A DNA stretch of 64,000 nucleotides from Streptomyces drozdowiczii. GTDB taxonomy: Bacteria; Actinomycetota; Actinomycetes; Streptomycetales; Streptomycetaceae. Shown one piece after another: positions 21,349 through 46,325 of this stretch. The stretch lies in NCBI RefSeq assembly GCF_026167665.1, contig NZ_CP098740.1, positions 6,386,001 through 6,450,000 on the forward strand, read 5' to 3'. The position numbers were made by a program, and so were the translations under genes. How positions within the stretch are numbered: the first letter of the stretch is position 1; each line of letters starts with the position of its first letter. The notes under the pieces are model-generated. The model did not search any database. It had not been told where the DNA came from and saw only the letters and a program-made list of their open reading frames with translations.

Positions 21349-23232
21349 GTGGCTCTCGCGCACCCTCGCACCTCCCGCAGACGCCGTACCACCCGGACCC
21401 TGCTCGGCGCCGTCACCGCCGGCATCCTCGCCGCCGCCGGACTGGTCGTCACCGGCCACACGTCGCACGCCGCGACCGCACGCCAGGTGGAGGCGCTGGA
21501 CCGGGGCGTCGTCAGCGTGCACACCGGCTCCGGCAACCTCATCAGCTGGCGCTGGCTCGCCACCGACCCCGACTCCGTCGCCTTCAACGTCTACCGCGCG
21601 GGTACGAAGGTCAACGCCTCGCCCGTCACCGGCTCGACCAACTACTTCCACACCGGCGCGCCCAACTCGGCCGACTACACCGTGCGCGCGGTGGTCGACG
21701 GCGTCGAGCAGGGCGACTCCGCGCACGCGGTCCAGTTCCGCGCCGGATACAAGGACGTGCCCATCTCCCCGCCCCCGGGCGGCACGACCCCCGACGGCGT
21801 CGCCTACACCTACGAGGCCAACGACGCCTCCGTCGGCGACCTCGACGGCGACGGCGCACTCGACTTCGTACTGAAGTGGCAGCCCACCAACGCCAAGGAC
21901 AACTCCCAGTCCGGCTACACCGGCAACACGATCCTGGACGGCATCAGGCTCGACGGCACCCGGCTGTGGCGGATCGACCTGGGCCGCAACATCCGCTCCG
22001 GGGCGCACTACACGCAGTTCCAGGTGTACGACTACGACGGCGACGGCCGGGCCGAGGTGGCGGTGAAGACCGCCGACGGCAGCGTCGACGGCCGGGGCAC
22101 CGTGATCGGCAGCGCGTCGGCCGACCACCGCAACTCCTCCGGCTACGTCCTGTCGGGACCCGAATACCTCACCATGTTCAACGGCTCGACGGGCGCCGCC
22201 ATGGGCACCGTCGACTACGTCCCCGCACGCGGCACCGTCTCCTCGTGGGGCGACGGCTACGGCAACCGCGTCGACCGCTTCCTCGCCGGCACCGCCTACC
22301 TGGACGGCGGCAGGCCCTCACTGATCATGGCGCGCGGCTACTACACCCGTACGGTGATCGCCGCCTGGGACTGGCGCGGCGGGGCCTTCACCCGGCGCTG
22401 GACCTTCGACACCAACAGCTCCACCAACTCCGGCCGGGGCTACGACGGCCAGGGCAACCACCAGCTGTCGGTGGCCGACGTGGACGGCGACGGCAGGGAC
22501 GAGATCGTCTACGGCGCCATGGCCGTGGACGACGACGGCCGGGCCCTGTGGACCACGAGGAACGGCCACGGCGACGCCATGCACGTCGGCGACCTGGACC
22601 CGTCGCGCCCGGGCCTGGAGGAGTTCAAGGTGGACGAGGACGGCTCGAAGCCCTCGTCCTGGATGGCCGACGCGAGGACGGGGCAGATCATCTGGTCGAC
22701 GCCCGCCGGGGGCGACAACGGACGCGGGGTCAGCGACGACATCTGGGCCGGCAGCCCCGGCGCCGAGTCCTGGTCGTCCGCCGCCTCCGGGATACGCGAC
22801 CCGCACGGCACGGTGGTCGCGAGCCGCAAGCCTTCCAGCACCAATTTCCTGGCCTGGTGGGACGGTGACACCACCCGGGAACTGCTGGACGGCACCCACA
22901 TCGACAAGTACGGCACCTCCGGCGACACCCGCCTGCTGACCGGCGCCTCGGTCCATTCCGGCAACGGCACCAAGGCCACCCCGGTCATCTCCGGCGACCT
23001 GTTCGGCGACTGGCGCGAGGAGGTGGTCTGGGCGACCACGAACAACACCGCGCTGCGGATCTACTCCACGCCGTACGAGACCCCCACCAGGATTACCACC
23101 CTGCTCCACGACACCACCTACCGCACCGCTCTGGCCTGGCAGAACACCGCGTACAACCAGCCGCCGCACCCCGGTTTCTTCCTCGGCAACGGCATGGCGG
23201 CCGCCCCGAGGCCCACGGTGTGGACCCCCTGA
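21349..23232 (+). CDS. secreted rhamnogalacturonan lyase, polysaccharide lyase family 11
   Basis: 627 residues. A basic N-terminus (SRRRRTTRTLL) and hydrophobic stretch to about residue 45 form a signal peptide. The mature protein begins RQVEALDRGVVSV, then an FnIII-like segment, then an eight-bladed propeller with repeated calcium motifs DLDGDGALDF, DYDGDGRAEV and DVDGDGRDEI. The motifs FKVDEDGSKPS, GRGVSDDIWAGSPGAE and LFGDWREEVVW match YesW/YesX-type PL11 lyases. These cleave the rhamnose-galacturonic acid backbone of pectin by beta-elimination outside the cell. The start is GTG after a GGAAGG site. It is monocistronic with a strong terminator. Confidence 0.93.
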   Translation: MALAHPRTSRRRRTTRTLLGAVTAGILAAAGLVVTGHTSHAATARQVEALDRGVVSVHTGSGNLISWRWLATDPDSVAFNVYRAGTKVNASPVTGSTNYFHTGAPNSADYTVRAVVDGVEQGDSAHAVQFRAGYKDVPISPPPGGTTPDGVAYTYEANDASVGDLDGDGALDFVLKWQPTNAKDNSQSGYTGNTILDGIRLDGTRLWRIDLGRNIRSGAHYTQFQVYDYDGDGRAEVAVKTADGSVDGRGTVIGSASADHRNSSGYVLSGPEYLTMFNGSTGAAMGTVDYVPARGTVSSWGDGYGNRVDRFLAGTAYLDGGRPSLIMARGYYTRTVIAAWDWRGGAFTRRWTFDTNSSTNSGRGYDGQGNHQLSVADVDGDGRDEIVYGAMAVDDDGRALWTTRNGHGDAMHVGDLDPSRPGLEEFKVDEDGSKPSSWMADARTGQIIWSTPAGGDNGRGVSDDIWAGSPGAESWSSAASGIRDPHGTVVASRKPSSTNFLAWWDGDTTRELLDGTHIDKYGTSGDTRLLTGASVHSGNGTKATPVISGDLFGDWREEVVWATTNNTALRIYSTPYETPTRITTLLHDTTYRTALAWQNTAYNQPPHPGFFLGNGMAAAPRPTVWTP

Positions 23233-27220: not shown

Positions 27221-28081
27221 GTGATCATCGTTACCGGAGCCACCGGAAAGCTCGGCCGCCGCACCGTCGAGCGCCTGCTGGAGCGCGTCCCCGCCGACCG
27301 TGTGGGCGTCAGTGTCCGCGATCCCCGCAAGGCCGGGGACCTCGCCGCCCGCGGTGTCCGCGTCCGGCAGGGCAGCTTCGACGACCCCGCCTCGCTCGTC
27401 CACGCGTTCGAGGGTGCCGAACAGGTGCTGATCGTCTCCCTGGACCGTACGGGCGAGGGGTGTGTCAACGGCCACCGCGCCGCGATCGACGCCGCCGTGA
27501 AGGCCGGTGCCGGCCGCATCCTCTACACGAGCCAGATGGGCGCCGCCCACGACTCCCGCTTCGAGGCGTGCCGCGACCACGCCCGGACCGAGGACCTGCT
27601 GCGCGCCACCGGCCTGCCCTGGACCTCGCTGCGCAACGGCTTCTACGCCGCCAGCGCCCTGTAGTTCCTGGAGGCCGCCCGCCACACCGGCGACATCGCC
27701 CTCCCCGCCGACGGCCCCGTCGCCTGGACCGGCCACGACGATCTCGCCGAGGCCACCGCGGTCGTCCTGGCCGAGGAGGGCCGCTTCGAGGGGCCCACCC
27801 CGCCGCTCACCGGTCCGGCGGCGCTCGACTTCGACGCCGTAGCCGGAATGGCGGCCCAGGTCACCGGGCGGCCCTTCACCCGCACCGTCGTCCCCGGCGA
27901 CGCCTACCGCGAGCAGGTCCTCGCGCACGGCGCCCCGGCCCCGGTCGCCGACCTGCTGCTGAGCATCTTCGAGGCGGCGCGGCACGGGGAGTTCGCCGCC
28001 GTCGACCCGACCCTGTCCGAACTGATCGGACGGGAACCCGCCGCCTTCCGCACGCTGCTGGAACGCGGCTGGTCCGAGTAG
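27221..28081 (+). pseudogene. NmrA/QorB-type NAD(P)H-binding reductase with an in-frame amber stop
   Basis: The frame encodes (M)IIVTGATGKLGRRTVERLL, the Rossmann glycine motif, and continues through LYTSQMGAAHDS to NGFYAASAL, where a TAG at 27662-27664 interrupts it. The same frame continues without a shift: FLEAARHTGDIALPADGPVAW and PAALDFDAVAGMAAQVTGR to a TAG at 28081. The full protein of 286 residues would be a normal NmrA-like atypical SDR. A single C-to-T change (CAG to TAG) explains the break. The GTG start follows GGGAGAA. The truncated product of 147 residues would lack part of the substrate domain. It might be read through, but nothing supports that specifically. Confidence 0.85.
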
Positions 28082-28128
28082 CCCCGGCCCGGTGCGGGCA
28101 CCCCGTCCGAGCTGCCACCTTTCATCGG

Positions 28129-28353
28129 CTTGCATATTTACGCAAATTCCTTGCGGGAGCGACCGGCTCCGGGCGCCTGAGGGGATCCGTGGCCAAATGC
28201 CCTTCTTGTCAGGCAAGTTGGCGTGCCCGGGCGGCGCCCGCAAGGCTGCGAACTTCTGCCGGAGTGGTGGACTCCACGTCAATTCTCTGCAACTCTCTGA
28301 CCGCAAAACGCAAAAGGTCATCCCGCCCGTGCAGAAAGTCATGTACGGGCGGG
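28129..28353 (+). promoter_or_regulatory. 329-bp leader/promoter region of the alpha-1,3-glucanase gene
   Basis: The gap 28082-28410 has no gene. It contains CTTGCATATTTACGCAAATT and CTTGCG (28129-28155), a tandem CGCAAAACGCAAAA (28302-28315) framed by TGACC / GGTCA (28298-28320), and a perfect 9-bp inverted repeat CCCGCCCGT / ACGGGCGGG (28322-28330 and 28345-28353). The AT-rich first element and the CGCAAA copies look like binding sites for a LacI-type sugar regulator; the second repeat may be an mRNA hairpin. Confidence 0.5.
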
Positions 28354-28410
28354 GTCGCAGACTGAGCCGCGCCTCGGCCGCCCTGCGCCGAGGCAGCAGA
28401 TCGGGGACAG

Positions 28411-31400
28411 ATGAGAACGCGACGCTGGAGATGGCGGATCCTTTCCGCGACCGTCTCCACCAGCCTGATGATGGTCGCCTGGCCGGCGCTGAACGCCTCG
28501 GCCGCCGGCGGCCCGAACATCGCCGCCGGCCACCGCGCCGCCGCGAGCAGCGGCACATCCGCCGGGAACATCGCCGACGGACAGCAGTCCACCTACTGGG
28601 AGGGGTCGGGCAAGTCCCTGCCCCAGTGGGTACAGAGCGACCTGGGCAAGGTCACCCGCATCGACCAGGTCACGCTGAAGCTCCCCGCCGACTGGTCGGC
28701 CCGCCGCCAGACGCTCTCCCTCCAGGGCAGCGTCGACGGCACCAGCTTCACCACGCTGAAGACCTCGGCCTCCTACTCCTTCGCACCGGGCAGCTCCAAC
28801 AAGGTCACGATCAGCTTCCCGGCCACTCAGGCCCGCTTCGTCCGGGCCGACATCACCGCGAACACCGCGTCCGACAACGGCCAGCTCGCCGAACTGGAGG
28901 TCCGGGCGGCGGCCGAGTCCTCGGTGAACCTCGCCGCCGGGCGCCCGCTCACAGCCAGCAGCAACACCCAGACGTACATCGCGGCCAACGCCAACGACGG
29001 CAACCGGGCCAGCTACTGGGAGAGCCGCAACAACGAGTTCCCGCAGTGGCTCCAGGCCGACCTGGGCTCCTCCGTGCGCGTCGACCGCGTGGTGCTGCGG
29101 CTGCCCGACGGCTGGGAGACCCGCAGCCAGACGCTGAAGATCCAGGGCAGCGCCAACGGCTCCGACTTCACGGACCTGACCCAGGCCAAGGCGTACACCT
29201 TCAGCCCCGGCTCCGAGACGGCGACGATCACCTTCGACGCCACCACCACCCGCTACGTCCGCGTCCTGGTCACCGCCAACAGCGTCCAGCCCGGCGCCCA
29301 GGTCTCCGAGCTGGAGATCTACGGCCCCGAGACCGGCGACACCCAGGCACCGAGCGCCCCGACGCAGCTGGCGTACACCGAACCGGCCACCGGGCAGATC
29401 AAGCTGACCTGGAAGCCCTCGACGGACGACACCGCCGTCACCGGCTACGACATCTACGCCGACAACACCCTGCTCACCAGCGTCGCCGGTGACGTCACCA
29501 CGTACACCGACACCCGCCCGGCCGGCTCCACCGTCTCGTACTACGTACGGGCCAAGGACGCCGCGGGCAACGTCTCGGGCAACAGCAACACCGTCACCCG
29601 CAAGGGGGACTCCGGTGACACCCAGGCGCCCACCGCACCGGCGAACCTGAGCTTCACCGAGCCCGCCTCCGGACAGATCAAGCTGACCTGGACGGCGTCC
29701 ACCGACAACAAGGGCGTCACCGGGTACGACATCTACGCCAACAACGTGCTGCGCAAGACCGTGGCCGGCGATGTCACCACGTACACCGACACCCAGCCCG
29801 CCGGCACCACCGTCTCGTACGTCGTACGGGCCAAGGACGCGGCGGGCAACGTCTCGGGCGACAGCAACACCGTCACCCGCAACGGCTCCACCGGCGCGGC
29901 CTCCAACCTCGCCGTCGGCAAGCCCATCACCGCCTCCTCCGTGGTGCACACCTTCGTCGCGGAGAACGCCAACGACAATCAGCTCTCCACCTACTGGGAG
30001 GGCGCCGGCGGCAGCTACCCCAACACCCTCACGGTGAAGCTGGGCGCCAACGCGGACACCCAGAGCGTCGTCGTGAAGCTCAACCCGGACAGCAGCTGGG
30101 GGGCCAGGACCCAGAACATCCAGGTCCTCGGCCGGGAGCAGAGCGCCTCGTCCTTCACCAGCCTGGTCGCCGCCAAGGACTACGCGTTCAGCCCGGGCAG
30201 CGCCAACACGGTGACGATCCCGGTCGACGCCCGAGTGGCCGACGTCCAGCTGAAGTTCACCTCCAACACCGGCGCGCCCGCCGGGCAGGTCGCGGAGTTC
30301 CAGGTCCTGGGCGCCCCGGCACCCAACCCGAACCTCCAGGTCAGCGCAGTGACGGCGAGCCCGGCCGCACCCGTCGAGTCGGACCCGGTCACGCTCACCG
30401 CGACGGTGCGCAACACCGGCGCCGTCGCCGCCCCGGCCGGCAAGCTCGAATTCCGGCTCGGCGGCACCAAGGTCGCGACCGCCAACGTGGGTGCGCTCGC
30501 CGCCGGGGCCTCCGCGCAGGTCAGCGCGAACATCGGGGCGCGGGGCGCGGGCACGTACACGCTGAGCGCGGTCGCCGACCCGGACAACCAGATCATCGAG
30601 CAGAACGAGACCGACAACACCTACACCAGCGCCTCCGGCCTGGTCGTGAAGCCGGTCGCCAGCTCCGACCTGGTGCCCACCGCGGTCACCACCTCGCCCT
30701 CGGCACCGGCCCAGGGCGACAACGTCACCTTCTCCGTCGCCATCCGGAACCAGGGCACGGTCGCCTCCGCCTCGGGCGGTCACGCCGTCACCGTCACCCT
30801 GCTCGACTCCAAGGGCGCCACGGTGAAGACCCTCACCGGCAGCTACAACGGCTCGATCGCCGCGGGCGCCACCAGCTCCCCGGTGAACCTGGGCTCCTGG
30901 ACGGCGGCCAACGGCTCGTACACCGTGAAGACGGTCGTCGCGGACGACGCCGAGGAACTGCCGGTCAAGCGCGAGAACAACACCGTCAGCAGCTCCTTCT
31001 TCGTCGGGCGCGGCGCCAACATGCCGTACGACACCTACGAGGCGGAGGACGGCGTCACCGGCGGCGGCGCCAAGGTCGTCGGGCCGAACAGGACCGTCGG
31101 CGACATCGCGGGCGAGGCGTCGGGCCGCAAGGCGGTCACGCTGAACAGCACCGGAAACTACGTCGAGTTCACCACCCGGGCCAGCACCAACACCCTGGTG
31201 ACCCGCTACTCCATCCCGGACTCCGCGGGCGGCGGCGGCATCGACTCCACGCTCAACGTCTACGTGGACGGCACCTTCCTCAAGACGATCGACCTCACCT
31301 CGAAGTACGCCTGGCTGTACGGCGCCGAGACCGGCCCCGGCAACTCCCCGGGCTCCGGTTCACCCCGGCACATCTACGACGAGGCCAACGTGATGCTGGG

Positions 31401-32688
31401 CAGGACCGTCCCGGCGGGCAGCAAGATCCGGCTCCAGAAGGACACGGCGAACACCAGCACCTACGCGATCGACTTCGTCAGCCTGGAGCAGGCCGCCCAG
31501 ATCGCCAACCCGGACCCGGCCGCCTACGCCGTTCCGGCCGGCTTCACCCATCAGGACGTCCAGAACGCCCTGGACAAGGTGCGCATGGACACCACGGGCA
31601 AGCTGGTGGGCGTCTACCTGCCCGCGGGCGACTACCAGACCGCGAGCAAGTTCCAGGTGTACGGCAAGGCCGTCAAGGTGATCGGTGCGGGGCCCTGGTA
31701 CACCAGGTTCCACGCGCCCTCGACCCAGGAGAACACCGACATCGGCTTCCGGGCCGAGGCGAGCGCCAAGGGCTCGACGTTCGCGAACTTCGCGTACTTC
31801 GGGAACTACACCTCGCGCATCGACGGACCGGGCAAGGTGTTCGACTTCTCCAACGTGTCGGACATGGTCATCGACAACATCTGGAACGAGCACACGGTGT
31901 GCCTCTACTGGGGTGCCAACACCGACAACATCACCATCAAGAACTCCCGTATCCGGGACACGTTCGCCGACGGCATCAACATGACCAACGGCTCGACCGA
32001 CAACCACGTCGTCAACAACGAGTCGCGGGCCACCGGTGACGACAGCTTCGCGCTGTTCTCGGCGATCGACGCCGGCGGCGCGGACATGAAGAACAACGTC
32101 TACGAGAACCTCACCTCGCTCCTGACCTGGCGCGCGGCCGGTGTGGCCGTCTACGGCGGCTACGACAACACCTTCCGCAACATCCGCATCGCGGACACCC
32201 TGGTGTACTCGGGGATCACGGTCAGCTCGCTCGACTTCGGCTACCCGATGAACGGCTTCGGGACCGGCCCGACGACGGTCGAGAACGTCTCCGTGGTCCG
32301 CTCCGGCGGCCATTTCTGGGGCACCCAGACCTTCCCCGGCATCTGGCTGTTCTCCGCCTCCAAGGTCTTCCAGGGCATCCGGATCAACCACGTCGACATC
32401 GTCGACCCGACGTACAGCGGCATCATGTTCCAGACCAACTACGTGGGAGGCCAGCCGCAGTTCCCGATCAAGGACACCATCCTGACCGACATCTCGATCT
32501 CCGGCGCCCACAAGAGCGGCGACGCCTTCGACGCCAAGTCCGGCTTCGGGCTGTGGGCCAACGAGATGCCCGAGGCCGGCCAGGGACCCGCCGTCGGTGA
32601 GGTCACCTTCAACGGGCTCAGGTTCAGCGACAACGCCCAGGACGTGAAGAACACGACGTCCACCATGAAGATCAACATCAACCCGTAG
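28411..32688 (+). CDS. secreted multidomain alpha-1,3-glucanase (GH87, mutanase/mycodextranase type)
   Basis: 1425 residues with a signal peptide (about 1-32). Domains in order: discoidin/F5-8C (about 36-165), discoidin (170-307), FnIII (311-400), FnIII (404-492), discoidin (497-635), CARDB (640-745), CARDB (751-865), a CBM6-like domain (871-1030; TYEAEDGVTGGGAKVVG) and a right-handed beta-helix GH87 catalytic domain (about 1035-1425). Three aspartates, Asp1187 (FADGIN) and Asp1210-Asp1211 (TGDDSF), have the same spacing as the catalytic Asp trio I recall from Paenibacillus AglFH1. It cuts alpha-1,3-glucan of fungal walls or biofilms to nigero-oligosaccharides outside the cell. The ATG follows GGGGACAG. 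The importer and alpha-glucosidase genes follow. Confidence 0.88.
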   Translation: MRTRRWRWRILSATVSTSLMMVAWPALNASAAGGPNIAAGHRAAASSGTSAGNIADGQQSTYWEGSGKSLPQWVQSDLGKVTRIDQVTLKLPADWSARRQTLSLQGSVDGTSFTTLKTSASYSFAPGSSNKVTISFPATQARFVRADITANTASDNGQLAELEVRAAAESSVNLAAGRPLTASSNTQTYIAANANDGNRASYWESRNNEFPQWLQADLGSSVRVDRVVLRLPDGWETRSQTLKIQGSANGSDFTDLTQAKAYTFSPGSETATITFDATTTRYVRVLVTANSVQPGAQVSELEIYGPETGDTQAPSAPTQLAYTEPATGQIKLTWKPSTDDTAVTGYDIYADNTLLTSVAGDVTTYTDTRPAGSTVSYYVRAKDAAGNVSGNSNTVTRKGDSGDTQAPTAPANLSFTEPASGQIKLTWTASTDNKGVTGYDIYANNVLRKTVAGDVTTYTDTQPAGTTVSYVVRAKDAAGNVSGDSNTVTRNGSTGAASNLAVGKPITASSVVHTFVAENANDNQLSTYWEGAGGSYPNTLTVKLGANADTQSVVVKLNPDSSWGARTQNIQVLGREQSASSFTSLVAAKDYAFSPGSANTVTIPVDARVADVQLKFTSNTGAPAGQVAEFQVLGAPAPNPNLQVSAVTASPAAPVESDPVTLTATVRNTGAVAAPAGKLEFRLGGTKVATANVGALAAGASAQVSANIGARGAGTYTLSAVADPDNQIIEQNETDNTYTSASGLVVKPVASSDLVPTAVTTSPSAPAQGDNVTFSVAIRNQGTVASASGGHAVTVTLLDSKGATVKTLTGSYNGSIAAGATSSPVNLGSWTAANGSYTVKTVVADDAEELPVKRENNTVSSSFFVGRGANMPYDTYEAEDGVTGGGAKVVGPNRTVGDIAGEASGRKAVTLNSTGNYVEFTTRASTNTLVTRYSIPDSAGGGGIDSTLNVYVDGTFLKTIDLTSKYAWLYGAETGPGNSPGSGSPRHIYDEANVMLGRTVPAGSKIRLQKDTANTSTYAIDFVSLEQAAQIANPDPAAYAVPAGFTHQDVQNALDKVRMDTTGKLVGVYLPAGDYQTASKFQVYGKAVKVIGAGPWYTRFHAPSTQENTDIGFRAEASAKGSTFANFAYFGNYTSRIDGPGKVFDFSNVSDMVIDNIWNEHTVCLYWGANTDNITIKNSRIRDTFADGINMTNGSTDNHVVNNESRATGDDSFALFSAIDAGGADMKNNVYENLTSLLTWRAAGVAVYGGYDNTFRNIRIADTLVYSGITVSSLDFGYPMNGFGTGPTTVENVSVVRSGGHFWGTQTFPGIWLFSASKVFQGIRINHVDIVDPTYSGIMFQTNYVGGQPQFPIKDTILTDISISGAHKSGDAFDAKSGFGLWANEMPEAGQGPAVGEVTFNGLRFSDNAQDVKNTTSTMKININP
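29338..29886 (+). repeat. tandem duplication of a fibronectin type III coding unit
   Basis: Two units of 279 bp (29338-29616 and from 29617) encode near-identical FnIII domains: DTQAPSAP.../DTQAPTAP..., GQIKLTW, VTGYDIYA, VAGDVTTYTDT and VRAKDAAGNVSG occur in both. The high nucleotide similarity indicates recent duplication or gene conversion. Confidence 0.8.
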
Positions 32689-32703
32689 CAACCACCGCAC
32701 ACA

Positions 32704-32735
32704 GGGGCGTCGTCCGGTCCGCCGGGCGGCGCCCC
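32704..32735 (+). terminator. hairpin terminator after the GH87 gene
   Basis: A 13-bp stem with two G-U pairs (arms GGGGCGTCGTCCG and CGGGCGGCGCCCC) and a 6-base loop, 16 bp after the stop codon. It separates the glucanase transcript from the importer operon. Confidence 0.65.
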
Positions 32736-32786
32736 GTGCTGCACTCGCGCCGGATTCCGCATGCGGCGTACCGATGGCTGTCAAAC

Positions 32787-32816
32787 TTTTACGAAAACTG
32801 CGCGAGATATTGCGTT
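32787..32816 (+). promoter_or_regulatory. AT-rich candidate operator/promoter of the importer operon
   Basis: CTTTTACGAAAACTGCG followed by ATATTGCG is the only AT-rich stretch of the 214-bp gap before the binding-protein gene. The TTTACG(C)AAA core is shared with 28137-28146 upstream of the glucanase gene, suggesting one regulator for both. Confidence 0.4.
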
Positions 32817-32902
32817 CACATGTCGACGCTGGTTGAGTGTGCCTCGCCCCGGCAGTCAGTCGGCCGAGGGCCATCCACGCTCATGCCCGAAGGGGACCAT
32901 CG

Positions 32903-34327
32903 ATGAGAAGTGCTGGGTTGCGCCGCACACGCCGTATCAGCCGTGCCTCCGCGGCTGCCCTTGTCACCGCACTTGCGCTGACCTCGCTCGCGTCCTGCGG
33001 CACGAGCAGCAGCAAGGACGACGACTCGAGCAGTTCGTCCAAGGGTTCGTCCGACCCCTCGGCTCCGCTGGACCCGAAGACCAAGGTGACGATCTCCATC
33101 GACTGCATGCCGCCGGCCGCCAAGGCCGCGGAGCTGCGGGAGTGGAAGGAGGACATCAAGACGTTCAACGAGAAGTACCCGAACGTCACGATCAACGGCA
33201 AGTCCACCCCGGGCCAGTGCAACGAGCCGCCCCGCTTCACCGCCATGCTGAAGGGCAAGTCGCAGCCCGACGTCTTCTACGCCTACTTCAGCGACCTCCA
33301 GCAGGTCCTGGACAACGACGGCGCCGAGGACATCTCCGCGTACGTCAACGACAAGACCGTGCCCGCGCTGAAGGACATCCAGCCGCAGGTCGTCGACGTG
33401 GCCCGCAAGGACGGCAAGCTCTACGGCCTGCCGACCAGCAACTACACCATGGGCCTGATGATCAACCGGAAGCTGTTCAAGCAGGCCGGTCTCGACCCGA
33501 ACACCCCGCCCGCCACCTGGGACGAGGTGCGCGCCGCCGCCAAGAAGATCGCGGGCCTCGGCAAGGGCATCTCCGGCTACGGCGAGTACAGCGCCGGCAA
33601 CAACGGCGGCTGGCACTTCGCCGCCACGCAGTTCGGCCTCGGCGGGGAGATAGTCGACGCCTCCGGCAAGAAGGCCGCCTTCAACAACGAGACCGGCAAG
33701 CAGGTCCTCCAGCAGCTGCACGACATGCGCTGGGAGGACGACAGCATGGGCAAGACCCAGCTGCTCAAGTGGGGCGACCTCCAGAAGCAGATCGCCAGCG
33801 ACAAGCTCGGCATGTTCCTCGCCGCCCCCGACGACATCGCCTACATGGTGCAGCAGCTCGGCGCCTCGTACGAGACCTTCGGCCTGGGCCCGATCCCCGG
33901 CGCCAAGGGCACCCTCTTCGGCGGCAACAACTACCTGATCAAGAAGGGCAGCTCGCCCGACCAGATCAAGGCCGCCATCGCCTGGCTCAACTTCAAGAAC
34001 CTAACCCCCGGCAAGGGCCAGTTCGACTGGGCCCGCACCAAGGCCGACAAGCTCCCCGTCGGACTGCCGCAGCCGAACTTCTTCCTCGGCGAGAGCAAGA
34101 CCAAGGACGACGCCGCACGCGCCCAGAACGCGACGATGCCCGTCGAGAACTTCAAGGCCTTCATGGACAACCCCGTCCCCGGCAAGGCCGAGCCCCCGAA
34201 GGCCCAGGAGATCTACAAGATCCTCGACAACGCCATGTCGGGCGTCCTGACCAACAAGAACGCCGACATCGACAAGCTGCTCTCCACCGCCGAGCAGCAG
34301 GTCAACCAGGTTCTGGCGAACCAGTAA
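32903..34327 (+). CDS. sugar ABC transporter solute-binding lipoprotein (CUT1, MalE-like)
   Basis: 474 residues. A lipoprotein signal ends at LASC (Cys32), followed by a Ser/Asp/Lys-rich linker to about residue 60. The body is a family-1 extracellular binding protein: FNEKYPNVTINGK, SQPDVFYAYFSDLQQ, KLYGLPTSNYTMGLMINRKLFKQAG and FLAAPDDIAYMVQQLG. It captures the oligosaccharide on the outer membrane face and hands it to the two permeases encoded next. The ATG at 32903 follows GAAGGGGACC. The context (GH87 upstream, GH13 downstream) suggests nigero- or other alpha-gluco-oligosaccharides as ligand. A strong hairpin directly after the stop would favour its expression over the permeases. Confidence 0.93.
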   Translation: MRSAGLRRTRRISRASAAALVTALALTSLASCGTSSSKDDDSSSSSKGSSDPSAPLDPKTKVTISIDCMPPAAKAAELREWKEDIKTFNEKYPNVTINGKSTPGQCNEPPRFTAMLKGKSQPDVFYAYFSDLQQVLDNDGAEDISAYVNDKTVPALKDIQPQVVDVARKDGKLYGLPTSNYTMGLMINRKLFKQAGLDPNTPPATWDEVRAAAKKIAGLGKGISGYGEYSAGNNGGWHFAATQFGLGGEIVDASGKKAAFNNETGKQVLQQLHDMRWEDDSMGKTQLLKWGDLQKQIASDKLGMFLAAPDDIAYMVQQLGASYETFGLGPIPGAKGTLFGGNNYLIKKGSSPDQIKAAIAWLNFKNLTPGKGQFDWARTKADKLPVGLPQPNFFLGESKTKDDAARAQNATMPVENFKAFMDNPVPGKAEPPKAQEIYKILDNAMSGVLTNKNADIDKLLSTAEQQVNQVLANQ

Positions 34328-34334
34328 CGGACGC

Positions 34335-34365
34335 GCGGGGCCGGGTCACGCGGACCCGGCCCCGC
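34335..34365 (+). terminator. intra-operon hairpin between the binding protein and permease genes
   Basis: A perfect 13-bp stem, GCGGGGCCGGGTC / GACCCGGCCCCGC, with a 5-base loop starts 8 bp after the stop of the binding-protein gene. It lacks a U-tract. It probably acts as a partial terminator or 3' mRNA stabiliser, as described for malE-malF type gaps. Confidence 0.75.
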
Positions 34366-34418
34366 ATCCGGACCCCGTCCGCTACGCGCTCGTCGTACAC
34401 CGGCACCGAGGAGACACC

Positions 34419-35378
34419 ATGTCGGCCCCAACCCTGTCCCCCCGCAAGGCGACCCGGCCTCGCCCAGGACACCGAAGCTCCGCCCGCCCGGACTCCGCCC
34501 GCGAGGAGTTCCTGCGCGCCCTGCGCCGCAACATCTCAGCGCACGGCTTCCTGATCGGAGCGGTGCTCTGCTTCTCCCTCTTCTCCTGGTATCCGATGGT
34601 CCGGGAATTCATCCTGGCCTTCCAGAAGAACGAGGACGGCACCACCACCTGGGCCGGCTGGTCCAACCTCACGTACGTCTTCAACGACCCGGCCTTCTGG
34701 CAGGCATGGCGCAACACCCTGCTGTTCACCGTCCTCGCCCTGCTCCTCGGCTTCGTCGTCCCGTTCGCCGTCGCCGTCGTGCTCAACGAGTTCCGGCACG
34801 GCCAGGGCTACCTGCGGCTGCTCGTCTACCTCCCCGTGATGCTGCCGCCGGTCGCCTCGGTCCTGCTCTTCAAGTACTTCTACGACCCCGGCTACGGGCT
34901 CTTCAACCGCATCCTGGGCATCTTCCACCTGCCCGAACAGCAGTGGCTCCAGGACACCAGCACCTCGATGCTCTCCGTCGTCATCGCGGCGACCTGGATG
35001 AACATGGGCGGCGCCACCCTCATCTACCTCGCCGCGCTCCAGGGCATCCCCGGCGAGCTGTACGAGGCCGCCGAGCTCGACGGCGCCGGGCTGCTGCGGA
35101 AGATCTGGCACGTCACCATCCCGCAGACCCGCCTCATCCTCTCGCTCCTGCTGCTCATGCAGATCATCGCGACGATGCAGGTCTTCACCGAGCCCTTCCT
35201 GCTCACCAACGGCGCCGGACCCGAGGGCTCCACCACCACCGTCGTCTACCTCATCTACCAGTACGCCTTCAACTTCAACAACTACGGCAGCGCGGCGGCA
35301 CTCGGCCTCGTCCTGCTCGTCGTCCTCGCGGGATTCTCCGCGGTGTACGTACGGCTGAGCCGCAGCAGCGAAGACTAG
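34419..35378 (+). CDS. sugar ABC transporter permease (MalF-like)
   Basis: 319 residues with six transmembrane helices (first about 42-62). The EAA loop that contacts the ATPase is EAAELDGAGLLRKIWHVTIPQ (about 205-225). The N-terminal 35 residues are basic and cytoplasmic. With the next permease it forms the membrane channel of a CUT1 importer. No ATPase gene is nearby; in Streptomyces CUT1 systems commonly share MsiK. The ATG at 34419 follows GAGGAGA. Confidence 0.94.
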   Translation: MSAPTLSPRKATRPRPGHRSSARPDSAREEFLRALRRNISAHGFLIGAVLCFSLFSWYPMVREFILAFQKNEDGTTTWAGWSNLTYVFNDPAFWQAWRNTLLFTVLALLLGFVVPFAVAVVLNEFRHGQGYLRLLVYLPVMLPPVASVLLFKYFYDPGYGLFNRILGIFHLPEQQWLQDTSTSMLSVVIAATWMNMGGATLIYLAALQGIPGELYEAAELDGAGLLRKIWHVTIPQTRLILSLLLLMQIIATMQVFTEPFLLTNGAGPEGSTTTVVYLIYQYAFNFNNYGSAAALGLVLLVVLAGFSAVYVRLSRSSED

Positions 35379-35394
35379 GACGGGAGCCAAGACC

Positions 35395-36354
35395 ATGGCA
35401 TCGAACACGCTTGTCTCCCGGCGCGGGAGCACTCCACGCAAGTCCGCACGCCGCACGTCCGACGGCGGCGCCGAACGGGCCCGCCAGCGCACCCTGATCT
35501 CACCGGCCCAGCTCGGCCGGCCGCGCGGCAAGGCCGTCTACTGGATCGTCTTCGGCCTGGTGATGGTCCTGTTCACGGCGGTCTTCCTCGGCCCGCTCTA
35601 CTGGATGGTCACCGGCGGCCTGAAGACCACCCAGGAAGTGGTGCAGAGCCCGCCCACGGCCTTCCCCAGCTCCCTCCACACCGAGAACTACAGCCAGGCA
35701 TGGACGGTCATGGACCTGTCCAAGCTGCTGTTCAACACCCTGTACTACGCCTTCGGGGCACTCGCCTTCCAGCTGATCTTCGACGTCGCCGCCGCCTACT
35801 CGCTGTCCAAGCTGCGGCCGATCTTCGGCAAGGTCATCCTCGGCATGATGTTGGCCACCCTGATGATCCCGGCCACCGTGCTCGTCGTCCCGCAGTACCT
35901 CACGGTCCTGGACGTGCCCCTGGTCCAGCGCAACCTGGTCAACTCGCCCTGGGCGATCTGGCTGCCGTCGGTCACCAACGCCTTCAACATCTTCCTGCTG
36001 AAGCGGTTCTTCGACTCCATCCCGGGCGAACTCCTCGACGCCGCGGCCATGGACGGCGCCTCACCCCTGCGCACCCTGCGCTCGATCATCCTGCCCATCT
36101 CCCGGCCGATCCTCGGGGTCGTCTCCATCTTCGCCGTCGTCGGCGTGTGGAAGGACTTCCTCTGGCCGATGCTCACGCTGCCCGACCCGAACAAGCAGAC
36201 CCTCAACGTGGGCATCTACTCACTGGCCAGCGGCGTCCCCGAGAACGTCCTGATCGCCGCGCTCACCATCGCGTCGATCCCGACGCTGCTGATCTTCCTG
36301 CTCTTCCAGCGCAACATCATGAGCGGTCTCACCGCGGGCGGCCTCAAGGGCTGA
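35395..36354 (+). CDS. sugar ABC transporter permease (MalG-like)
   Basis: 319 residues, six transmembrane helices, with a long basic N-terminus (about 1-50). The EAA loop reads DAAAMDGASPLRTLRSIILPI (about 218-238), and the C-terminus FQRNIMSGLTAGGLKG is the classic MalG ending that sits in the channel. It starts 17 bp after the previous permease, with a GGGAGCC site, so they are one operon. It pairs with the MalF-like subunit. Confidence 0.95.
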   Translation: MASNTLVSRRGSTPRKSARRTSDGGAERARQRTLISPAQLGRPRGKAVYWIVFGLVMVLFTAVFLGPLYWMVTGGLKTTQEVVQSPPTAFPSSLHTENYSQAWTVMDLSKLLFNTLYYAFGALAFQLIFDVAAAYSLSKLRPIFGKVILGMMLATLMIPATVLVVPQYLTVLDVPLVQRNLVNSPWAIWLPSVTNAFNIFLLKRFFDSIPGELLDAAAMDGASPLRTLRSIILPISRPILGVVSIFAVVGVWKDFLWPMLTLPDPNKQTLNVGIYSLASGVPENVLIAALTIASIPTLLIFLLFQRNIMSGLTAGGLKG

Positions 36355-36386
36355 CGCCCGCTCCCCGGAACCGCCTTCCCCTCAGC

Positions 36387-36439
36387 ACTCCGCCGCCGGC
36401 TCTTCCATCCTGCCCCGCTTACCGGGCCGGCGGCGGAGT
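36387..36439 (+). terminator. intra-operon hairpin between the permease and alpha-glucosidase genes
   Basis: A perfect 13-bp stem, ACTCCGCCGCCGG / CCGGCGGCGGAGT, with a 27-base loop lies in the 109-bp gap before the GH13 gene, ending 25 bp before its start. It may attenuate transcription of the enzyme gene or stabilise the permease mRNA. Confidence 0.6.
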
Positions 36440-36463
36440 CCCACCTGCCCGAAAGGAACGTCC

Positions 36464-38089
36464 GTGGCAGCCAACCGTCCGTCCGAGGCCACCGCACCCT
36501 GGTGGCGCGACGCCGCCATCTACCAGATCTACGTACGCAGCTTCGCCGACGGCGACGGCGACGGCACCGGCGACCTGGCAGGGGTACGGGCCAGGCTGCC
36601 CTACCTCGTCGAACTGGGCGTGGACGCCCTCTGGTTCACCCCCTGGTACCTCTCGCCGCTGGCCGACGGCGGTTACGACGTGGCCGACTACCGTACGATC
36701 GACCCCGCGTTCGGCACCCTCGCCGAGGCCGAGAAGCTGATCGCCGAGGCCCGCGAGCTGGGCATCCGCACCATCGTCGACATCGTGCCCAACCATGTGT
36801 CGGACCAGCACCCCTGGTTCCGCGCCGCCCTGGAAGCCGGCTCCGGCAGCCCCGAGCGCGACCTCTTCCACTTCCGCAAGGGCCGCGGCGCGAACGGCGA
36901 GATCCCGCCCAACGACTGGGTCTCCGAATTCGGCGGCACCCCCTGGACCAGGCTGGACGACGGCGAGTGGTACCTCCACCTCTTCGCCACCCAGCAGCCC
37001 GACCTCAACTGGGCCCACCCCGCCGTCCGCCGCGAGCACGAGGACGTCCTGCGCTTCTGGTTCGAACGCGGCGTCGCCGGCGTACGCATCGACTCCGCCG
37101 CCCTGCTCGCCAAGGACCCCGCGCTCCCCGACTTCACCCTCGGCAGCGACCCGCACCCCTTTGTCGACCGGGACGAACTCCACGACATCTACCGCTCCTG
37201 GCGCGCCATCGCCGACGAGTACGACGGGGTCTTCGTCGGCGAGGTCTGGCTCCCCGACACCGAGCGCTTCGCCCGCTACCTGCGCCCGGACGAGCTGCAC
37301 ACCGCCTTCAACTTCAACTTCCTGGCCTGCCCCTGGGACCCGGAGAAGCTGCGGACCGCCATCGACGACACGCTCTCCGAGCACGCCTCGGTCGGCGCCC
37401 CCGCCACCTGGGTCCTCTGCAACCACGACGTCACCCGTACCGTCACCCGCTACGGCCGCGAGGAGACCGGGTTCGACTTCGCCGCCAAGACCTTCGGCAC
37501 CCCCACCGACCTCGCCCTCGGCACCCGCCGGGCCCGCGCCGCCGCCCTCCTCTCGCTGGCCCTGCCCGGCGCGGCCTACCTCTACCAGGGCGAGGAACTG
37601 GGCCTGCCCGAGGCCGACATCCCGCTCGACCGCATCCAGGACCCGATGCACTTCCGCAAGAACGGCACCGACCCGGGCCGGGACGGCTGCCGGGTGCCCA
37701 TGCCCTGGGCGGCGGGCGAACCGTACGCCGGATTCGGGGCCACCACGGAGACCTGGCTCCCGCAGCCCGACGGCTGGTCCGGCTACGCCGCCGACATCCA
37801 GAACGGCGACCCGGACTCCATGCTCAGCCTGTACCGCGAGGCCCTGCGGCTGCGGCGCTCCGAAGCGGGCTTCGGGACCGGGGGAGAGCCCGGCATCCGG
37901 CGGCTGACCTGGCTCGACGCCCCGCCCGGGGTGCTCGCCTTCGCCCGGACCGACGGACTGCTCTGCGTCGTCAACCTGGCCGCCGAAGCCGCGGAGCTGC
38001 CCCCGCACAGCGCGGTGCTGCTCACCAGCGGACCGCTGGACGAGGCCGGCCGCCTCCCGCAGGACACGGCGGTGTGGCTGCGCGCCTGA
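36464..38089 (+). CDS. cytoplasmic GH13 alpha-glucosidase
   Basis: 541 residues, no signal peptide. The (beta/alpha)8 barrel motifs are all present: DIVPNH, GVRIDS with the nucleophile Asp210, FVGEVWL with the acid/base Glu260, and NHDVTR with the transition-state Asp322. DRIQDPMHFRKNGTDPGRDGCRVPMPW is a signature of oligo-1,6-/alpha-glucosidases (GH13_30-like). A C-terminal beta domain follows (about 455-541). It would hydrolyse imported alpha-gluco-oligosaccharides to glucose. The GTG start follows AAAGGAACG. It is the last gene of the importer operon, followed by a long terminator hairpin. Specificity for alpha-1,3 linkages is inferred only from context. Confidence 0.93.
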   Translation: MAANRPSEATAPWWRDAAIYQIYVRSFADGDGDGTGDLAGVRARLPYLVELGVDALWFTPWYLSPLADGGYDVADYRTIDPAFGTLAEAEKLIAEARELGIRTIVDIVPNHVSDQHPWFRAALEAGSGSPERDLFHFRKGRGANGEIPPNDWVSEFGGTPWTRLDDGEWYLHLFATQQPDLNWAHPAVRREHEDVLRFWFERGVAGVRIDSAALLAKDPALPDFTLGSDPHPFVDRDELHDIYRSWRAIADEYDGVFVGEVWLPDTERFARYLRPDELHTAFNFNFLACPWDPEKLRTAIDDTLSEHASVGAPATWVLCNHDVTRTVTRYGREETGFDFAAKTFGTPTDLALGTRRARAAALLSLALPGAAYLYQGEELGLPEADIPLDRIQDPMHFRKNGTDPGRDGCRVPMPWAAGEPYAGFGATTETWLPQPDGWSGYAADIQNGDPDSMLSLYREALRLRRSEAGFGTGGEPGIRRLTWLDAPPGVLAFARTDGLLCVVNLAAEAAELPPHSAVLLTSGPLDEAGRLPQDTAVWLRA

Positions 38090-38113
38090 CGGACGCCCCG
38101 GCGGGCCGCATCC

Positions 38114-38159
38114 GCCGCACGGGCCGGGACGCGTGGGAGCGCGTCCAGGCCCGTGCGGC
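38114..38159 (+). terminator. large hairpin terminator of the glucan operon
   Basis: Outer 12-bp stem GCCGCACGGGCC / GGCCCGTGCGGC and inner 6-bp stem GACGCG / CGCGTC, with a 2x2 internal loop and a 6-base cap. It ends the GH13 transcript. Confidence 0.75.
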
Positions 38160-38198
38160 AGGTTCGCGGGCGGGCCGGGGCTGCGGCACAGTGGGCTT

Positions 38199-38535: not shown

Positions 38536-38549
38536 TGAGAGCGCTCTCA
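38536..38549. promoter_or_regulatory. perfect 14-bp palindrome, LacI-type (CebR-box-like) operator
   Basis: TGAGAGCGCTCTCA is a perfect palindrome that differs by two symmetric bases from the CebR box TGGGAGCGCTCCCA of Streptomyces cellobiose genes. It ends 19 bp before the GTG of the GNAT gene and lies 450 bp past the alpha-glucosidase gene. A LacI-family regulator is the likely binder. Confidence 0.7.
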
Positions 38550-46144: not shown

Positions 46145-46325
46145 GTGGTAGCGTCCCCGGAGCCAGTCGAACTCCTCGTGGGAGTCAGGGAATCCGGTGC
46201 GAATCCGGAACTGACGCGCAGCGGTGAGGGGGACGGGCGGGGCCACGGCCACTGGGAGACCCGGCGTCTCCCGGGAAGGCGTCCCGCCCGGACGAACCCG
46301 AGTCCGAAGACCTGCTGGCGACCGC
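46145..46325 (+). ncRNA. cobalamin riboswitch
   Basis: The B12-box core GGGAATCCGGTGCGAATCC (46188-46206), followed by GGAACTGACGCGCAGCGGT, matches the cobalamin aptamer consensus, and the 3' AGTCCGAAGACCTGC (46301-46315) is its closing element. GC-rich arms between them (46225-46295) form the variable P-region. It precedes a B12-type ABC importer operon, and should turn it off when adenosylcobalamin is plentiful. Exact ends are estimates. Confidence 0.93.

What the first reader, a model, noticed from the sequence alone, without database searches (positions are those of the whole stretch)
28411..38089. Self-contained alpha-1,3-glucan utilisation locus: GH87 glucanase, CUT1 importer and GH13 alpha-glucosidase
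A giant secreted GH87 enzyme with three discoidin, two FnIII, two CARDB and one CBM6-like domain, and with the expected Asp1187/Asp1210/Asp1211 spacing, is followed by a complete binding protein/permease set and an intracellular alpha-glucosidase, each with its own RNA hairpin. GH87 enzymes are known as isolated secreted enzymes; a linked dedicated import and cleavage pathway for nigero-oligosaccharides is, as far as I know, not described as a unit. It would suit a predator of fungi or a biofilm-glucan degrader.
Basis: partly seen in the sequence, partly recalled or inferred. Interest (0 to 1): 0.75.

Follow-up and report, generated by a model that had tools for sequence, protein, structure and literature searches.

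The report
Alpha-1,3-glucan import and digestion locus
Five neighbouring Streptomyces genes appear to cut up alpha-1,3-glucan (a polymer of fungal walls and dental plaque) outside the cell, import the pieces and digest them inside; the same block recurs beside such glucan-cutting enzymes in many actinobacteria, though its sugar specificity has not been tested.

Summary
Observation confirmed: a secreted 1425-aa GH87 alpha-1,3-glucanase with its three catalytic Asp, a lipoprotein sugar-binding protein (SBP), two CUT1 permeases and a cytosolic GH13 alpha-glucosidase, with intergenic hairpins.

They are a conserved unit. In 150 Streptomyces genomes GH87 occurs in 87 and this SBP family in 88, both in 85. 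Of 80 fetched SBP loci, 76 carry the whole SBP-permease-permease-GH13 cassette and 64 have GH87 within 12 kb. The linkage recurs in at least three gene orders and in other families of the class. One order pairs the cassette with a close relative of Agl-ST, a known alpha-1,3-glucanase. The cassette GH13 forms its own clade apart from the host's maltase-like enzyme. Both promoters carry conserved TTGCG-type boxes, and 65 of 80 loci encode a MalR-related LacI regulator.

A comparable GH87/ABC/LacI cluster, with GH65 and GH31 enzymes, was already noted in Lachnoclostridium. 'CBM6-like' is part of the catalytic unit. Nigero-oligosaccharide specificity is inferred, not shown.

The parts
28129..28156 (+). 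Cluster of TTGCG/TTGCA-type boxes upstream of GH87 (CTTGCA..ACGCAAA..CTTGCGG), candidate operator
   Evidence: Unique in window; TTGCG/CGCAA boxes in the 320 bp upstream of 31 anchored GH87 starts: 99 against 29.6 +/- 5.2 in resampled sequence
28411..32688 (+). Secreted GH87 endo-alpha-1,3-glucanase, 1425 aa; catalytic unit residues 870-1406; Asp1187, Asp1210, Asp1211
   Evidence: signal peptide by eye
32697..32742 (+). Stem-loop after GH87
   Evidence: z -2.69 for 32689-32777
32778..32814 (+). Conserved promoter/operator block upstream of SBP; a further conserved TTGAGTGTGC follows just downstream
   Evidence: 67 of 81 loci match at least 24 of 37 bases; best in ten shuffles of one locus 18-20; unique in window
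32903..34327 (+). Lipoprotein sugar-binding protein (CUT1 SBP), 474 aa
   Evidence: Pfam SBP_bac_1, 117.5 bits; start and lipobox by eye
34335..34365 (+). Stem-loop between SBP and first permease
   Evidence: z -2.05 for 34328-34418
34419..35378 (+). CUT1 permease 1 (MalF/UgpA-like)
   Evidence: Pfam BPD_transp_1; NCBIfam matches below cut-offs
35395..36354 (+). CUT1 permease 2 (MalG/UgpE-like)
   Evidence: Pfam BPD_transp_1; NCBIfam matches below cut-offs
36387..36439 (+). Stem-loop before GH13
   Evidence: z -2.45 for 36355-36463
36464..38089 (+). Cytosolic GH13 alpha-glucosidase, 541 aa, with Asp-Ser-Ala at the nucleophile
   Evidence: Pfam Alpha-amylase, 339.9 bits; signature; clade apart from host paralogues; no signal peptide by eye
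38114..38159 (+). Strong stem-loop after GH13, likely end of the unit
   Evidence: z -4.40 for 38090-38170

Best explanation
This is a dedicated alpha-1,3-glucan utilisation locus. The secreted, multi-domain GH87 enzyme binds and cuts insoluble alpha-1,3-glucan (fungal wall or biofilm mutan) into short nigero-oligosaccharides. The lipoprotein SBP captures them and the two CUT1 permeases import them, powered by an ATPase encoded elsewhere (a shared MsiK-type ATPase is recalled, not shown). The cytosolic GH13 enzyme then cleaves them to glucose. In most related loci a MalR-related LacI repressor next to the cassette would control both transcription units through TTGCG-type boxes; in this strain's lineage that regulator is not in the locus. 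Shown: gene content, conservation, co-occurrence, conserved upstream sequence. Inferred: substrate, direction of flux, GH13 linkage specificity, regulator-operator pairing.
For: GH87 with conserved catalytic Asp. Co-occurrence in 150 Streptomyces genomes: GH87 in 87, SBP in 88, both in 85; the GH13 orthologue group in 86, of which 83 have GH87. In 345 genomes of the class all 45 with GH87 have an SBP relative at E<=1e-40 (60 genomes do), and 30 of the 32 with SBP at E<=1e-100 have GH87 (read off). Synteny: of 80 genus loci, 76 full cassettes and 64 with GH87 within 12 kb; of 80 named loci, 77 and 65. At least three gene orders and several GH87 subtypes. The GH87 downstream of GH13 in the second order, tested in one representative (L133), matches Agl-ST 7c7d at E 7e-248. 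A sample of 50 cassette GH13 sequences forms one clade (100/97); DSA at the nucleophile in 164 of 169. Locus LacI regulators group apart from the host's MalR-like pair. Conserved boxes at both promoters resemble the MalR core CTTGCAG (PMC5526262, passages). A GH87 enzyme releases glucose, nigerose and nigerotriose from a fungal wall (PMC10696023, abstract); S. castrisilvae grows on mutan (PMC11475409, passages).
Against: No biochemical data for this SBP or this GH13. GH13 is 54% identical to the host's AglA-like enzyme, so it could be a general alpha-glucosidase. Five type-C cassette GH13 sequences carry DVA instead of DSA although next to GH87. Three of 150 genomes have SBP and GH13 without GH87 (G034, G075, G149), and 2 of 32 class genomes with close SBP lack GH87 (G382, G456). 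16 of 80 genus loci and 15 of 80 named loci lack GH87 within 12 kb, some cut by contig ends. 9 of 27 GH87-bearing genomes of other genera do not show GH87 and SBP close together. Shared ancestry inflates the co-occurrence statistics.
Confidence: 0.8

Rival explanations
1. The locus serves mixed-linkage alpha-glucans (nigeran alpha-1,3/1,4, or alternan-like alpha-1,3/1,6), and importer and GH13 handle mixed-linkage oligosaccharides rather than nigero-oligosaccharides.
For: GH87 also contains mycodextranases (PMC13421300 and PMC11475409, passages); cassettes pair with several GH87 subtypes.
Against: The window GH87 is closest to Agl-FH1, and the second order's representative GH87 (L133) to Agl-ST, both deposited as alpha-1,3-glucanases.
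Confidence: 0.13
2. A MalEFG-AglA paralogue for maltodextrin uptake that happens to lie beside GH87.
For: Family resemblance of permeases and GH13 to maltose systems and of the related loci's LacI to the host's MalR-like pair.
Against: The host has a separate SBP-permease-permease-GH13 locus at about 5.05 Mb; the SBP is only 29% identical to its binding protein over the matched part; GH13 and LacI are separate clades; co-occurrence with GH87 in 85 of 150 genomes and at least three gene orders.
Confidence: 0.05
3. GH87 is mainly an antifungal weapon and the cassette is a minor scavenger or sensing system.
For: GH87 enzymes act on fungal walls (PMC10696023, abstract).
Against: A full importer with an intracellular glucosidase in 76 of 80 loci points to feeding.
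Confidence: 0.02

Closest known systems
Lachnoclostridium phytofermentans Cphy_1874-1877 region (PMC9061262, passages)
   Same: A GH87 gene near nigerose-degrading enzymes, with ABC-transporter and LacI genes in the cluster; proposed for nigerose degradation.
   Different: Intracellular step by GH65 nigerose phosphorylase and GH31 alpha-1,3-glucosidase, not GH13. Homology of its importer to this one was not tested.
Streptomyces malR-malEFG-aglA maltose operon
   Same: SBP-permease-permease-GH13 order with LacI/MalR regulator; MalR core CTTGCAG resembles the boxes here (PMC5526262, passages). The S. coelicolor gene order is recalled; the host's own copy was seen.
   Different: No GH87 beside the host's copy; SBP 29% over the matched part, GH13 54% identical; separate clades.
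Prevotella melaninogenica putative PUL (PMC13421300, passages)
   Same: GH87 within a putative utilisation locus with an alpha-glucosidase (GH97).
   Different: Bacteroidota locus with GH97 and GH99; 'GH13' does not occur in its main text.
Agl-FH1 (6k0m) and Agl-ST (7c7d) GH87 alpha-1,3-glucanases
   Same: Catalytic unit and, for Agl-FH1, the Asp triad motifs.
   Different: Known as enzymes; their own genomic neighbourhoods were not examined here.

Membership tests
GH87 alpha-1,3-glucanase | CatAgl_D1 and CatAgl_D2 domains above curated cut-offs | tested here: met
   266.3 and 353 bits against cut-off 27
GH87 alpha-1,3-glucanase | Three catalytic Asp of Agl-FH1 (D1045, D1068, D1069) | tested here: met
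   Asp1187/1210/1211 in motifs identical to 6k0m, same spacing; roles from PMC10696023 passages
GH87 alpha-1,3-glucanase | Hydrolysis of alpha-1,3-glucan | not testable with these tools
   Needs an enzyme assay
CUT1 ABC importer | Extracytoplasmic SBP plus two permeases | tested here: met
   SBP_bac_1 and two BPD_transp_1 proteins
CUT1 ABC importer | ATPase encoded in the locus | tested here: not met
   None among the genes scanned between 21.3 and 42.5 kb; MalK-like matches elsewhere in the genome, all below that family's cut-off. A shared MsiK is usual in Streptomyces (recalled).
GH13 alpha-glucosidase | Alpha-amylase catalytic domain with the Asp/Glu/Asp of regions II-IV | tested here: met
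   339.9 bits; RIDSA, GEVW and NHD motifs
GH13 alpha-glucosidase | Preference for alpha-1,3 linkages | not testable with these tools
   Only a clade-specific signature was found
malEFG-aglA maltose operon | Orthology of SBP and GH13 to the host's maltose-type genes | tested here: not met
   Separate locus and low SBP identity; separate GH13 clade
L. phytofermentans-type nigerose cluster | GH65 nigerose phosphorylase and GH31 alpha-1,3-glucosidase in the cluster | tested here: not met
   No GH65 or GH31 hit among the genes scanned between 21.3 and 42.5 kb

The most novel reading that the evidence does not exclude
An actinobacteria-wide alpha-1,3-glucan utilisation system: a new GH13 clade of cytosolic alpha-1,3-glucosidases marked by Asp-Ser-Ala, a nigero-oligosaccharide-specific CUT1 binding protein, and a dedicated MalR-paralogous repressor acting on TTGCG boxes, which can become detached from the locus as in this strain.
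Probability: 0.55. Interest if true: 0.65.

Novelty: new variant of a known kind. Interest (0 to 1): 0.5.

Why it matters
Alpha-1,3-glucan is a structural component of some fungal walls and of dental-plaque biofilms, and how bacteria feed on it is known mostly at the level of single secreted enzymes. A conserved locus would name the importer, the intracellular enzyme and the regulator, make each directly testable, and give a rule for predicting which actinobacteria eat this polymer. PMC11475409 (passages) says there is limited information on enzymatic degradation of mutan, and PMC13421300 (passages) that, to its authors' knowledge, no GH87-containing PUL had been experimentally characterised.

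Tried and rejected
Chance neighbourhood was rejected by co-occurrence and synteny. Identity with the host's maltose-type operon was rejected. Other flanking genes as part of the unit: representatives of ten recurring neighbour clusters in related loci gave unrelated domains (sensor kinase, symporter, oxidoreductases, proline racemase, citrate synthase and others). Generic promoter and terminator scans were uninformative. A search for the paper behind 8yie/8yif listed only papers that looked unrelated to the deposition. NCBIfam gave only sub-cut-off hits for GH87, permeases and GH13; the SBP was not scanned there because I gave an overlapping ORF of another frame (32761-34554), which also gave no Pfam hit. 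No structure prediction was run.

Limits of the counts. One search listed 102 SBP places; 80 of the 101 outside the window were fetched, leaving out 13 mid-list and the 8 weakest. One search kept the best 80 of 559 confirmed stretches, so that set is biased to close relatives. 7 and 9 of these two sets of 80 are cut near the SBP by contig ends. Of the 20 other-genus loci, 18 were chosen because GH87 and SBP lay close and 2 because GH87 was absent, so they are no unbiased sample; the unbiased figure is 18 of 27 GH87-bearing genomes of other genera (read off). The GH13 set of 86 uses the gap between 73% and 66% identity and includes two truncated matches (G047, G082); three of the four GH87 genomes without it (G050, G112, G142) may be misses, since or 30 shows cassette pieces there. 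The box count includes a few mis-anchored starts. The block search took the best match anywhere in each locus; its control was ten mononucleotide shuffles of one locus. In some searches spans out of frame, with a stop or too short were dropped; one search used a sample of 50 of the 169 cassette GH13 sequences. In the LacI tree, 90 rows form one clade (100/90), six type-C regulators another (99/100); the two together against the MalR-like pair are weakly supported (86/42), and three locus rows (L121_1, L157_0, L206_0) fell among distant regulators.

Literature searches behind 'not found': (open-access PMC full text only). PMC11475409, PMC13421300, PMC10696023, PMC5526262, PMC6828939, PMC9061262 and PMC10096246 were seen as passages; all other papers only as search listings.
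Full report
What is there. The ORFs are at the stated coordinates. GH87 28411-32688 has CatAgl_D1 (870-1027) and CatAgl_D2 (1048-1406), three F5/8C and two CARDB stretches, and FnIII-like sequence. Its best solved relative is Agl-FH1 6k0m (E 1.8e-122). Asp1187, 1210 and 1211 sit in motifs identical to 6k0m and match the spacing of D1045/D1068/D1069 (PMC10696023, passages). Next come the SBP (start at 32903 and lipobox by eye), two permeases and a GH13 enzyme without signal peptide (by eye). Four intergenic stretches fold better than shuffles (z -2.05 to -4.40).

The host has other copies. The genome (7.39 Mb, one contig) has further GH87 genes and a separate SBP-permease-permease-GH13 set at about 5.05 Mb flanked by two MalR-like LacI genes. 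The window's SBP is 29% identical to that binding protein over the matched part, and its GH13 is 54% identical to that maltase-like enzyme.

Co-occurrence. In 150 Streptomyces genomes GH87 was found in 87 and the SBP family at E<=1e-60 in 88; 85 have both, GH87 alone in G048 and G102, SBP alone in G034, G075 and G149. The GH13 orthologue group (at least 73% identity) occurs in 86, 83 of them with GH87; those without GH87 are the same three genomes, and the GH87 genomes without it are G048, G050, G112 and G142. Related genomes are not independent, so the Fisher p-values overstate the case; the repeated rearrangements below suffer less from that.

Synteny. Of 80 fetched genus loci, 76 have the full cassette, 64 GH87 within 12 kb, 65 a LacI gene within 8 kb, 62 cassette plus GH87. 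Of 80 named loci (the best 80 of 559), the figures are 77, 65, 56 and 62. GH87 lies upstream of SBP, downstream of GH13, or between permease 2 and GH13, with some divergent cases. At class level, 45 of 345 genomes have GH87 and all 45 have an SBP relative at E<=1e-40 (60 do in all); at E<=1e-100 it is 30 of 32 (read off). Among 27 GH87-bearing genomes of other genera, 18 have GH87 and SBP close together on one contig and 9 do not (read off). All 20 other-genus loci fetched hold the cassette, 19 with a LacI gene (18 of them chosen for closeness).

Two unlike glucanases share one cassette. The GH87 beside a second-order cassette (one representative, L133) matches Agl-ST 7c7d with E 7e-248, whereas the window enzyme is Agl-FH1-like. 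In loci of that order the GH13 is mostly 76-82% identical to the window's (71% in L147) while the SBPs are about 38-47% identical. A common substrate made of alpha-1,3-glucan fragments is the simplest reading.

GH13. A sample of 50 cassette GH13 sequences forms a clade apart from three host paralogues (100/97). In 164 of 169 the residue after the nucleophile is Ser; in the three paralogues and in five type-C cassettes it is Val. Residues of conserved region II are reported to matter for specificity in one GH13 subfamily (start of the abstract of PMC13000629, listing; that the nucleophile lies there is recalled), but nothing here shows alpha-1,3 preference.

Regulation. The regulator of these loci is a LacI protein (Pfam). 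In the tree, 90 rows from several families form one clade (100/90) that also holds three detached copies; six type-C regulators form another; the host's MalR-like pair stands apart, though the joint branch that separates it is weak (86/42). The SBP promoter block is conserved in 67 of 81 loci. The 320 bp upstream of GH87 hold 99 TTGCG/CGCAA boxes in 31 loci against 29.6 +/- 5.2 expected. MalR's core is CTTGCAG (PMC5526262, passages). Regulator binding to these boxes is inferred. In this window and its nearest kin (L091, L092, L094-L096) no local regulator was found, as in ten other loci of the 80. Six relatives have a copy elsewhere in one open frame; in this genome that copy falls into two frames. 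Because a GH87 paralogue at about 6.737 Mb is also split, an assembly error is possible.

What is known. A Lachnoclostridium cluster with GH87, nigerose phosphorylase, GH31 alpha-1,3-glucosidase, ABC-transporter and LacI genes is noted in PMC9061262 (passages). PMC13421300 describes a putative GH87/GH97/GH99 locus in Prevotella and says that, to its authors' knowledge, no GH87-containing PUL had been characterised (passages). PMC11475409 reports streptomycetes growing on mutan; the word 'transporter' does not occur in its main text. The actinobacterial GH13 version was not found in the searches named in Tried and rejected.

Verdict. A real, conserved locus whose most likely role is alpha-1,3-glucan use: a new variant of a known kind of glycan-utilisation locus. 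The substrate of importer and GH13 is the open point.

Noticed in passing
G000:C1:1679453-1680480 (L177 9457-10481): The nearest copy of the GH87-locus LacI regulator lies about 4.7 Mb from the locus and reads in two frames; six relatives have it in one open frame.
   Followed up: partly
G000:C1:6736952-6737439: A GH87 paralogue of this genome also seems to read in two frames (two overlapping matches), so assembly indels are possible.
   Followed up: no
L153, L156, L157, L159, L160, L161, L163: A third cassette type with GH87 between permease 2 and GH13; five of these GH13 enzymes carry DVA instead of DSA, perhaps for another substrate.
   Followed up: partly
G034, G075, G149: Three Streptomyces genomes with SBP and GH13 of this type but no GH87 found: perhaps users of fragments released by others.
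   Followed up: no
L191-L194: Loci in another family with two GH87 genes around one cassette, and in each two nearby LacI genes of this kind.
   Followed up: no
window 28001-36000: G+C falls to 65-69% against 70-78% in the other 2-kb blocks.
   Followed up: no
window 38536-38549: Perfect palindrome TGAGAGCGCTCTCA of LacI-operator type (recalled) before a GNAT gene; by rough reckoning, not a call, a few palindromes of this length are expected by chance in the window.
   Followed up: no
window 46162-46319: Cobalamin riboswitch, 84 bits.
   Followed up: no
window 21349-23232: Rhamnogalacturonan lyase family 11, another polysaccharide enzyme nearby.
   Followed up: no
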